Source: Thermoleophilaceae bacterium (GTDB lineage Bacteria; Actinomycetota; Thermoleophilia; Solirubrobacterales; Thermoleophilaceae). From it: DNA of 64,000 bases. Under the pieces are notes generated by a model. That model did no database searches. It had not been told where the DNA came from and was given only the letters and a program-made list of their open reading frames with translations. The translations under genes and the position numbers were made by a program. Shown one piece after another: positions 35,137-38,112 of this stretch. The stretch covers positions 78,780 to 142,779 of the forward strand of contig JAUJNZ010000005.1 in assembly GCA_030447905.1 (NCBI GenBank), read 5' to 3'. Within the stretch, counting starts at the first letter, position 1; every line of letters begins with the position of its first letter.

Positions 35137-35179
35137 CGCCGGTCCCGGTGCCGCAGCGGTAGGTACCCCTTCTGCGAAG

Positions 35180-35362
35180 ATGCCTCGCATGGGAATCGCA
35201 GCCGACGTCCGCACACAACTCTCTGGCCTCTTACGCGACGAGTCTGGGACGACGGACGCGGCCCAGCGCTTCCAGGCCGCCATAACCCTGCTCTCCGAAC
35301 ACGCTCAGGAGCTTGAAGACCGAGTGGCGCAGCTCGAGCGCGAAGCGACGAAGCGCGAATAG
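35180..35362 (+). CDS. Small coiled-coil protein, hypothetical
   Basis: 60 residues from an ATG at 35180 (another at 35189): MGIAADVRTQLSGLLRDESG, AAQRFQAAITLLSEHAQE and a coiled-coil end LEDRVAQLEREATKRE. The heptad-like composition and acidic-basic alternation are protein-like, but no ribosome site is obvious and no family is recognised. Moderate to low confidence that it is expressed. Confidence 0.4.
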   Translation: MPRMGIAADVRTQLSGLLRDESGTTDAAQRFQAAITLLSEHAQELEDRVAQLEREATKRE

Positions 35363-35795
35363 CGTTCACCGGCTTTCGGGTTCGAGCCAAGGGCCGGACT
35401 CGCGATGCACGCTGACGGAGGTTTTGGGCGACTATGGGGCCGGTGAGCCGGCTACCAGGGGTCGTCCTTACCACCGTGGTGTCGGTAGTGTGGGTGCGCC
35501 GAGCGATCCCGGCCGTTCTCTCGGCGGGGCTCCTACTGACATGGACCTCTCCGTCAAGGTACCCGGCTCGGTTTGGTGGATCTCCCCTCGGCCTCGAGCA
35601 ACGGATGACCCTGGACAGCGACGGTCGATCAGACTGACATTCGCGGGTCGGGACCGCATGACCGGTAACCGTCGGGAGCTGCCTCCGACTAGGAACGCGG
35701 GTCACCGCCGAGAGGCGGCGCCGCATAGTAGGGCCGAGGGTTCTCCTTGCGGTCGGGCGCATCCGCTGCTCGAGACCGAGGGGTCCTTCCATCGC
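35363..35795. other. Stretch without a recognised gene, next to the IS110 element
   Basis: No reading frame in this segment has a recognisable protein pattern, and no RNA gene is evident. It probably contains the right end of the IS110 element, whose boundary I cannot define because this family lacks terminal inverted repeats. Confidence 0.4.
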
Positions 35796-36894
35796 TCAGC
35801 TCCTCCTGAGCGGCTGGGCGGTCGCAGTCGCCCACACGAAGCCCGAGAGCTCGCGAGCGACCGCGACGACGATCTTCTGGCGCGGCTTGCCGCGCCCTTG
35901 CATCCGGCGCCAGCGCCGACTCAGCCGCTGCTGACAGCGCCAGGCGCGCTCGACCGCGAGGGGGTCCTGGCCGCGCTGGCGGCGGGCGAGCTCGGCCCCC
36001 ACCTGCGGGCGGGCGCGCTGGTTCCAGGCCGCCTCGACAAGCAGTCGGCGCAGATGCGAGTTGCCGGCCTTGGTGATCGACCCTTGCCTGCGACTGTCGC
36101 CCGAGGAGCGCTCGGAAGGGACGAGGCCCACGTAGGCCATGAACTCCTCGGCGGAGCCGAAGCGGTCGAAGTCGCCGACCTCCACCGCGATCGCGAGCGC
36201 GGTCAGGGTGTCGATCCCGCGCAGGCAGCGGAGGCGGCCGACGAGGGCTCGCCACGGCTCCGCTTGCGCGAGTGCCGCGATCTCTCGCTCGAGCACCTCG
36301 ATGCGGCGGTCGACCAGGTCGAGCGCGTGCGGGTAGGTCTCGAAGGTGAGCTGCTGGGCGGGTCGCTCGAAGCTCTGGGCGCCGAGCCAGGCGCGGCGGG
36401 TGATCCCCCACGACTTGCCGGGGATCCTGGCGCCGTTGCGCAGCATGAACTTCGACATCCGGTGGCGGTCGCGCATGCGATCGAGCCGGGCGTCCTCGCG
36501 CGCGCGGATCAGGTCGCGAGCTGCCTCGCGCTCCGGGCGAGGGCACCTCGATCGGTTGGAGCAGTCCCGAGGCGTAGAGGCGGGCGAGCTGGCGCGCGTC
36601 GCGGCGGTCGGTCTTCACCCGGTCGCCTGGGCGCCTCGGCACGAGCGCCGGCGCGACCACCTCACAGGCGATCCCGCGCTCTCGCAGGTGGCGGTGGAGG
36701 CCGAACCCGGTCGGCCCGGCCTCATAGCAGGCGCGGACACCAGGCCAGCGGGCGAGCGTGCTCGCCACCGCCTCGTTGTCGGTCGGGAGAGTGCGCTCCT
36801 CGACGAGCTCGTCGCCTCGCACCGCGGCGAGTACGACCGTCGAGGCGTGGACGTCCAAGCCCACGGTTACCGTTGCGCTCCTAGGATCAGGCAT
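35796..36894 (-). mobile_element. IS110-family transposase, frameshifted
   Basis: The transposase begins at 36894 with the RuvC-like DEDD domain: VTVGLDVHAST (first Asp), RACYEAGPTGFGLHRHL (Glu) and VKTDRRDARQLARLYASGLL (two Asp). After PIEVPSP near 36536 the frame changes; the next frame continues EREAARDLIRAR, MRDRHRMSKFMLRNG, and the Transposase_20 domain LRCLRGIDTLTALAIAVEVG DF, FMAYVGLVPSERSSGDS, RQGSITKAGNSHLRRLLVEAA with its conserved Ser. One extra C in CCC at 36535-36537 explains the shift. Total length is about 365 residues, normal for the family. It is either inactivated or misread. Confidence 0.85.
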
Positions 36895-37040
36895 GGTCGG
36901 CGACTTCCGTATGTGGCTCTACCGGGCCCATCCCGGCAACCCACGCAGATGCGCAGGCGCCGACCAACTTCGTTGAGCGACCGGACGGCGCCACACGCGC
37001 CGGTCCATCCTGTCTAGTAGTTGGAGTCGGTCGCCCTTTT
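36895..37040 (-). ncRNA. Candidate bridge-RNA region of the IS110 element
   Basis: IS110-type elements encode a structured bridge RNA in the non-coding left end ahead of the transposase. Here the segment directly upstream of the transposase start has no gene and contains a stable stem-loop at 36979-37005 (GACCGGCGC loop GTGTG then GCGCC...CCGGTC on the minus strand) and a small CAAC-GAA-GTTG hairpin. No guide-target matching was possible by eye, so this is a positional inference. Confidence 0.35.
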
Positions 37041-37504
37041 CGATCCGGGAACGAGCTGTCCTCCCTCGTTTACCGGGTACGTCACCCCCCCTCGGTGTCG
37101 CGGCCCTCTTACTCCCCGTCCGCTACTCGGTAACGGAGAAGGGCCTCTCCTCGTGGCGCGTCGTCATAGCCACCACGGTCTTTATCGAATTCGTCATGGT
37201 CCTTTCCATCGGGCCATGCCTGGACGGGCAATGAGGCGAACGCCAACCCGCCCTACCCTAAGGTGGAAATAGAGGATGATCCGTCGACGTAGCCGTTCAG
37301 CGGAGGTCGAGGGGTAGTCCGATGCCCTTGTCGGCATCGCGTGGATCACCCTCAACGGCGTCTTCGGCCCATCTGCAGGACGGTGCTCACACCACGGCTC
37401 GGGCGGACCTCGAGGGCGTTAGCCGCTCACACCAACGCCACTCGAGAACTCCGCCAGCCTCGACCCCGTCCGGAGCGCTGCGATCCGCCGGCGTCAGGCA
37501 GCCC
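37041..37504. other. Gene-poor, less GC-rich stretch
   Basis: No convincing gene. The part 37150-37285 has visibly more A and T than its surroundings and includes one hydrophobic frame (WRVVIATTVFIEFVMVLSIG, stop at about 37232) that could be the remnant of a membrane protein. The rest shows only short frames without family resemblance. The composition suggests foreign or decayed DNA beside the insertion sequence. Confidence 0.4.
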
Positions 37505-37876
37505 TCAGATCGTCGTGGCGTGGGAGTCGGCCCGGCCCCCCGGCGCGCGCTCGGCCTGCCCCGAGTTCCCTGAGGGCGCGGCCTCGAGCACGGCGGCCAG
37601 AACTTCTCGCTGGCGGTCGGTGAGCGTGTCGAGCTGCTTGTTCTCGCTTAGCCCGACCGATACGAGCAGGCGCCGGCAGCGCGCGGCACCCCAGCGGCGC
37701 TGACTGCGCAGGAGATCGCCGATCTCCATGCTCGCGGCCTCCCAGGGAGGGTCGAGGACCACGGCGGCCGCGCTCACCGTCCCGGCGGCGACTCGGCGCT
37801 TGAGCTCGGCGCGGGCGAGGCGGACGCGATTGGCCTGCCTCAGCGCCTGGAGCTGCTGGGTCTGGTCGTCGGCCAT
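37505..37876 (-). CDS. Actinobacterial integration host factor (mIHF/sIHF)-like protein
   Basis: 123 residues from ATG 37876 (another in-frame ATG at 37891). The pattern RQANRVRLARAELKRRVAAG, then IGDLLRSQRRWGAARCRRLL and LTDRQREVLAAVL corresponds to the helix, helix-two-turn-helix and C-terminal GLxxRQR region of mycobacterial and streptomycete IHF, a nucleoid protein that bends DNA. It is a divergent paralogue (Cys in ARCRR, unusual DPPWEAASM insert). It neighbours the IS110 remnant region but shows no direct link to it. Confidence 0.75.
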   Translation of the reverse strand: MADDQTQQLQALRQANRVRLARAELKRRVAAGTVSAAAVVLDPPWEAASMEIGDLLRSQRRWGAARCRRLLVSVGLSENKQLDTLTDRQREVLAAVLEAAPSGNSGQAERAPGGRADSHATTI

Positions 37877-38112
37877 GGCGGTGCTGAGCATTCGTTGGTT
37901 CCCCCGGGACTCATATGTTCGGACGTGAATGACCGAGCCGCTCGCAGAAGCCCCTCCGGCGGCCCTTCCCCAGGCCGGGTCGCCCGCTTCGGAGCACACG
38001 GCCGCTGATAGAGGTCGGGGACGTTATGACCATCGGTCCCCGCCCGTCAACACCGACTCCGGCGGTCCGCGCGCTCGGAGCGCGGTTTTCGGTAGATCGC
38101 TTCCCTGCCTCC

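What the first reader, a model, noticed from the sequence alone, without database searches (positions are those of the whole stretch)
35796..37040. IS110 element with a possible bridge RNA
The non-coding segment before the transposase start has a stable stem-loop and no gene, in the place where IS110 elements encode the RNA that chooses target and donor. The transposase is one base out of frame.
Basis: inference. Interest (0 to 1): 0.5.

Follow-up and report, generated by a model that had tools for sequence, protein, structure and literature searches.

The report
RNA-guided insertion sequence, guide downstream
This is a broken jumping gene of a recently understood kind whose own RNA tells it where to insert; that guide RNA lies behind the transposase gene, and the hairpin seen in front of the gene is more likely a brake on its translation.

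Summary
The finding is an IS110-family element, but of the IS1111 group, at about 35536-37015 on the minus strand. The given coordinates miss about 260 bases of right end. The transposase frame break is real.

The bridge RNA (seekRNA) is not in front of the transposase but behind it, at 35748-35614. A covariance model built without the window or its three closest relatives finds it there (94.6 bits). Guide-target covariation is strong: in 54 loci the first three right-flank bases pair with the RNA in 82, 85 and 90% of loci (expected 25, 26, 38%). In that register the window's guide pairs with 4 bases of its own flank and no other of 53 flanks does as well. The RNA also carries copies of both element ends.

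The upstream segment shows no target-guide signal. It is a conserved mRNA leader: a covarying helix abuts the start codon (8 bp or more in 22 of 40 relatives, 11% of cross pairs). Occlusion of the ribosome-binding site is the likely role; ISPpu9 is a precedent. I found no description of such a leader for the IS1111 group in the searches named. The copy is single in its genome and probably inactive.

The parts
35536..37015 (-). Whole element, both AG cores counted (AG at 37014-37015 and 35536-35537)
   Evidence: Edges shared with relatives; edge motifs fixed by identical copies in other genomes; window edges, letters checked. That the core is AG is inferred.
37002..37008 (-). Left subterminal inverted repeat ATGGACC
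35541..35547 (-). Right subterminal inverted repeat GGTCCAT
36895..36965 (-). Structured mRNA leader; P1 helix GGTCGGCG (36965-36958) with CGCCGACC (36902-36895), which touches the start codon
   Evidence: Helix covariation in 40 leaders; letters checked
36530..36894 (-). Transposase N-terminal part, first frame, with the motifs LDVH, YEAGP and KTDRRDA that I take for the DEDD residues
   Evidence: catalytic labels from family knowledge
35796..36530 (-). Transposase C-terminal part in another frame, with GLVPSERSSG
   Evidence: matches the GL-P----S(t)G motif given for IS1111 in PMC11187229 section 6
35614..35748 (-). Bridge RNA / seekRNA core
   Evidence: Model R1 hit, 94.6 bits, E 1.3e-23, model built without the window clade
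35727..35733 (-). Right-target guide CCCTACT; CCTA pairs with right flank TAGG, the last CT with the core AG
35689..35693 (-). Left-target guide CCTAG, sense copy of the left junction
   Evidence: in the window CTAG agrees and the base before it does not
35661..35666 (-). Donor guide region antisense to the left end (ACCGGT)
35634..35640 (-). Donor guide ATGTCAG, copy of the right terminus
35552..35557 (-). TTGACG, possible -35 half of a circle-junction promoter (with CAGGAT at 37012-37007 as -10, 17 bases apart in a circle)
   Evidence: Letters checked; promoter role inferred from PMC11187229 and PMC11208160

Best explanation
An IS1111-group element of the IS110 family, single in its genome and broken in its transposase. 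Its right end encodes a bridge RNA (seekRNA). [quoted passage not shown] The recombinase would use these pairings to join a circular form of the element to its target around a shared AG. The segment before the transposase is the mRNA leader; its P1 helix next to the start codon probably hides the ribosome-binding site and keeps transposase low. Shown by sequence: ends, frame break, place and structure of the RNA, covariation of RNA with targets and donor ends, covariation of P1. Inferred: that the RNA is made and used, that the core is AG, that P1 lowers translation, that this copy is inactive.
For: Right end conserved beyond the transposase to 35536. RNA-flank covariation: one diagonal at z 13.5 against a background of sd 0.83 over 3914 diagonals; longest match own 5.32 against other 3.79 in 59 loci, 0 of 20000 shuffles; 39 of 54 loci match 3 bases or more in fixed register against 4.8% of cross pairs. 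Structure: 96.4% of cells paired against 80.8% shuffled, 53 double changes against 14.7, 0 of 500 each; slid versions 23-52% paired. Independent model R1 finds the RNA in the window, L036, L037 and L007 and behind the transposase in 10 of 10 further loci not used to build it. Subterminal repeats: own 7.46 against 5.46 in 28 elements, 0 of 10000. Leader P1.
Against: No RNA was seen; all is comparison. The window's own guide match is short: in the unanchored test 3 other flanks of 58 match the window RNA as well; it stands out only in the register that picked from the same data. Its left guide agrees in CTAG but not in the base before. The donor signals are weaker (z 3.5-5.1). Four of the five measures were never reached by shuffles, but further pair types were in 29 of 500. 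In 6 plasmid relatives the own guide-flank match is best in 3 (7 bases), tied in 2 and beaten in 1 (5 bases). Folding energy is not unusual (z -0.86, 39 of 200). P1 of 7 bp or more at the start is missing in 14 of 40 leaders. The exact empty site was not found.
Confidence: 0.92

Rival explanations
1. One reading: IS110 group proper, with the bridge RNA in the left end before the transposase.
For: The left segment is non-coding, conserved and structured.
Against: No target signal in the leader in four tests; model R1 and all guide covariation lie in the right end; long right end, subterminal repeats and GL-P----SG motif are IS1111 traits.
Confidence: 0.03
2. Both ends encode guide parts: the right-end RNA aims, and the left leader is a relic or second guide for the donor.
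For: PMC11187229 (section 6) counts 26 elements with two longer non-coding regions; the leader is conserved in many loci.
Against: Leader helices change sequence freely and lie against the start codon, which fits control of translation better; no flank signal. Donor matches of the leader were not tested apart from its own end.
Confidence: 0.05
3. The frame break is programmed frameshifting, not damage.
For: The catalytic and SG motifs survive on both sides of the break.
Against: The relative L037 is one open frame, and L036 is broken at another place, residue 65-66 of the L037 protein. Decay or an assembly error fits better; I cannot tell these apart.
Confidence: 0.03
4. The leader is conserved for a reason other than translation, for example binding of the recombinase or protection of the mRNA.
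For: A conserved inner motif G(C/T)GG(G/T)TT ... AGAGCC(G/A)C with one pair changing together in 13 of 13 leaders that hold both motifs, of 40.
Against: It does not explain why the outer helix ends 0-2 nt before the start codon. Both roles can hold together.
Confidence: 0.25

Closest known systems
IS1111-group elements with seekRNA (ISEc11, ISPa11, ISKpn4; PMC11187229)
   Same: DEDD/SG transposase, subterminal repeats, long non-coding region behind the transposase, top-strand match 5' of the bottom-strand match (sections 6 and 9 read).
   Different: This copy is frame-broken; its RNA and movement are untested; I did not compare it with those named sequences themselves.
IS621 and the IS110 group bridge RNA (PMC11208160)
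   Same: An RNA with separate target and donor matches, the core dinucleotide inside the pairings, and a circle-junction promoter described there.
   Different: There the RNA is in the left end and the strand order is reversed; the transposase is only remotely alike (IS621, 8wt6, phmmer E 2e-6).
ISPpu9 tnp leader (PMC8450116)
   Same: 5'-UTR of an IS110-family transposase mRNA folds over the ribosome-binding site; weakening the fold raised a reporter 26-fold there (passage seen).
   Different: IS110/IS492 branch, start at +245, with an antisense RNA; no evidence that the structures are homologous.

Membership tests
IS1111 group of the IS110 family | DEDD transposase with PF02371 and GL-P----S(t)G motif | tested here: met
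   split over two frames
IS1111 group of the IS110 family | Subterminal inverted repeats of 7-17 bp | tested here: met
   7 bp in the window; own longer than cross pairs in 28 elements. It is at the lower limit.
IS1111 group of the IS110 family | Longer non-coding region and RNA behind the transposase | tested here: met
   About 260 bases behind against about 121 before; RNA at 35748-35614
IS1111 group of the IS110 family | RNA with top-strand target match 5' of bottom-strand match | tested here: met
   for the set; right guide for the window
IS1111 group of the IS110 family | Circular intermediate, RNA bound to transposase, guided insertion | not testable with these tools
   Needs experiments
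IS110 group proper | Bridge RNA in the left end | tested here: not met
Leader that hides the ribosome-binding site (as in ISPpu9) | Conserved helix over the start region | tested here: met
   22 of 40 leaders with 8 bp or more ending within 2 nt of the start; 8 bp in the window; 4 of 6 plasmid relatives at the annotated start by strict count
Leader that hides the ribosome-binding site (as in ISPpu9) | The fold lowers translation | not testable with these tools
   Needs reporter fusions

The most novel reading that the evidence does not exclude
IS1111-group elements of several phyla share a cis-acting leader RNA in which a fast-changing but paired helix covers the transposase start and a conserved inner motif is read by some factor, perhaps the recombinase itself. 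Such elements would carry two structured RNAs: one that aims and one that throttles. No Rfam 15 family matched the window's leader.
Probability: 0.4. Interest if true: 0.5.

Novelty: new member of a known kind. Interest (0 to 1): 0.3.

Why it matters
It puts the guide RNA of this element at the right end and reads target and donor guides from natural covariation alone, in a lineage where, as far as I saw, none had been worked out. Model R1 finds such RNAs in several phyla. If the leader is a brake, it would explain how these elements stay quiet and would matter to anyone expressing IS1111 recombinases as genome-editing tools.

Tried and rejected
Rfam: no family at gathering score in the window; one chance-level match at relaxed threshold in 35400-37200. 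Single-sequence folding: not unusual for either segment. RNAalifold on the MAFFT leader alignment A3 gave no pairs; I replaced it by direct helix counts. Empty site: the joined flanks matched no other genome of 30; in same-genus G002 the whole stretch 35142-37458 is replaced by 56 bases, so the exact empty site stays unknown. Further copies in the own genome: only short matches of 38-176 bases and one weak R1 hit of 21.7 bits, E 0.011, not followed. Programmed frameshifting: see rivals.

Rows dropped before counts. Duplicate fetches of the same element were removed by hand. L038, L039, L049, L058, L066 and L079 (right edge uncertain) and the loci whose right edge my pattern missed were left out of the covariation set: 54 loci with 48 distinct RNAs, 35 of them with a left end. 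One search had 59 loci and still held L038, L049, L058, L066 and L079. L014, L042, L087 and L111 were left out of left-end sets. Start codons for the 40 leaders were picked by script; 5 of the 40 are not in frame with the start extrapolated from the alignment. Model R1 used 41 RNAs and omitted the window, L036, L037, L007, L050 and L083. Of 2879 plasmid records with a match I fetched 6 of the 25 listed. The first covariation script was spoiled by missing values and was repeated.

Full report
What is there. On the minus strand, ATG 36894 opens an IS110-family transposase whose N-terminal (PF01548, under its cut-off) and C-terminal (PF02371) parts lie in different frames, with the break near 36530. 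NCBIfam matches both parts, each under its cut-off, to 'IS110 family RNA-guided transposase'. The element is single in its 2.58-Mb, 25-contig genome; three other PF02371 matches there are elsewhere and weaker. Nearest relatives by DNA: L036 (76% over 1494 columns), L007 (77%, left part missing), L037 (70%) and L008 (74%, left part only). L037 has an open frame that holds all 363 residues of its transposase; L036 is broken at another place.

Ends. L036, L037 and L008 begin at window 37015-37017. Beyond the transposase stop, similarity reaches window 35536 in L036 and L007 and 35609 in L037; L042, L043, L046 and L047, whose transposases are 40-47% identical to that of L037, share parts of this end at 71-78% DNA identity. 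Identical copies in single genomes show the same edge motifs: 5 in G370, 4 in G294, 3 in OY282380. The window's edges are CTAGACAGGATGGACC on the left and TTGACGGAGAGGTCCATGTCAG on the right. The subterminal repeat is 7 bp; in 28 elements own repeats are longer than cross pairs (7.46 against 5.46; 0 of 10000 shuffles; 23 of 28 have 7 bp or more).

Guide RNA. The longest antisense match between right-end RNA and right flank is 5.32 on average for own pairs and 3.79 for others (59 loci; 0 of 20000 shuffles). Column by column in 54 loci (48 distinct RNAs) one diagonal stands out at z 13.5, background sd 0.83: flank bases 1 to 5 pair in 82, 85, 90, 51 and 41% of loci, expected 25, 26, 38, 25 and 25%. 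In that register 39 of 54 loci match 3 bases or more (4.8% of cross pairs) and 22 of 54 match 4 or more (1.5%). The window matches 4, and none of 53 other flanks does as well. The register comes from the same data, and in the unanchored test 3 other flanks of 58 tie with the window's own. 3' of this guide lies a sense copy of the left junction (92% against 48% at position 0, 57% against 31% just outside; 35 loci), then a stretch antisense to the left end (79 and 83% against 43 and 40%), then a copy of the right terminus whose variable base agrees in 77% against 47%. For example the window, L036 and L037 have ATGTCAG in both places and L007 has ATATCAG in both. The order, top-strand match before bottom-strand match, is that reported for IS1111 (PMC11187229, section 9 read).

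Structure and independent test. RNAalifold gives two helices, 9 pairs. 96.4% of cells pair (shuffled 80.8%), with 53 double-change cells (shuffled 14.7), 0 of 500 shuffles each; further pair types are less special (29 of 500); versions slid by 1-3 columns pair 23-52%. Model R1, from 41 relatives without the window, L036, L037 and L007, hits the window once, at 35748-35614 (94.6 bits, E 1.3e-23), and also L037, L007 and L036. It hits 10 of 10 further loci behind the transposase, 22 to 105 bits, six of them plasmid records from Actinomycetota, Pseudomonadota and Bacillota. In those six the own guide-flank match is 7, 7, 7, 5, 5 and 5 bases: the three 7s beat every cross pair; of the 5s two tie and one is beaten by a cross pair.

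The upstream segment. It shows no target signal (four tests). It is a leader: the last 18 nt before the start pair with upstream leader better in their own leader than across leaders (score 21.85 against 16.28; 40 leaders; 0 of 5000). A helix of 8 bp or more that ends within 2 nt of the start is found in 22 of 40 leaders and 11% of cross pairs; 18 different octamers occur among the 26 helices of 7 bp or more. In the window it is 8 bp, GGTCGGCG with CGCCGACC, touching ATG. A strict count finds it at the annotated start in 4 of 6 plasmid relatives. An inner pair changes together (C-G 7, T-A 6) in the 13 of 40 leaders with both motifs. 14 of 40 leaders lack a P1 of 7 bp by this count, and folding energy gives no support.

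Target. The joined flanks read CTACTAGTAG, a palindrome, in a stretch without annotated gene that the same-genus genome G002 lacks.

Literature. Bridge RNA and its place in the two groups: PMC11208160 (abstract, sections 4, 6 and 12 read; other passages seen) and PMC11187229 (abstract, sections 6, 9 and 13 read; passages seen). A leader that hides the ribosome-binding site: PMC8450116 (abstract and passages seen), for ISPpu9. I found no report of such a leader in the IS1111 group; searches: IS1111 + Shine-Dalgarno, IS110 with leader and repression terms, IS1111 + untranslated region, IS110 family + ribosome binding site + secondary structure. Of those lists I opened only the papers named here, and most subscription papers are not held.

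Verdict.

Noticed in passing
35142-37458: Compared with same-genus G002 (locus L129), the whole 2.3-kb stretch around the element is replaced by 56 bases, so the element sits inside a lineage-specific insert.
   Followed up: partly
37505-37999 (minus strand): A 164-aa open frame with no Pfam match but 86% DNA identity in same-genus G002 and weaker matches in 4 more of 10 other genomes: probably a real gene of unknown function.
   Followed up: no
L013, L074, L093, L115 (right flanks): Elements in different genomes share nearly the same right flank (CTGTAGTTCCTAAC, CTGTAGTTCCTAGG, CTGTAAGTCCTAGG, CTGTAGTTCCTGAG): a recurrent target site.
   Followed up: no
G000:C19:35247-35388 (L132): Weak second match of the bridge RNA model in the own genome (21.7 bits, E 0.011), not beside the PF02371 matches.
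   Followed up: no
L037 transposase: It also matches the NCBIfam model of the TIGR-Tas endonuclease, far under its cut-off (29.1 of 100 bits).
   Followed up: no
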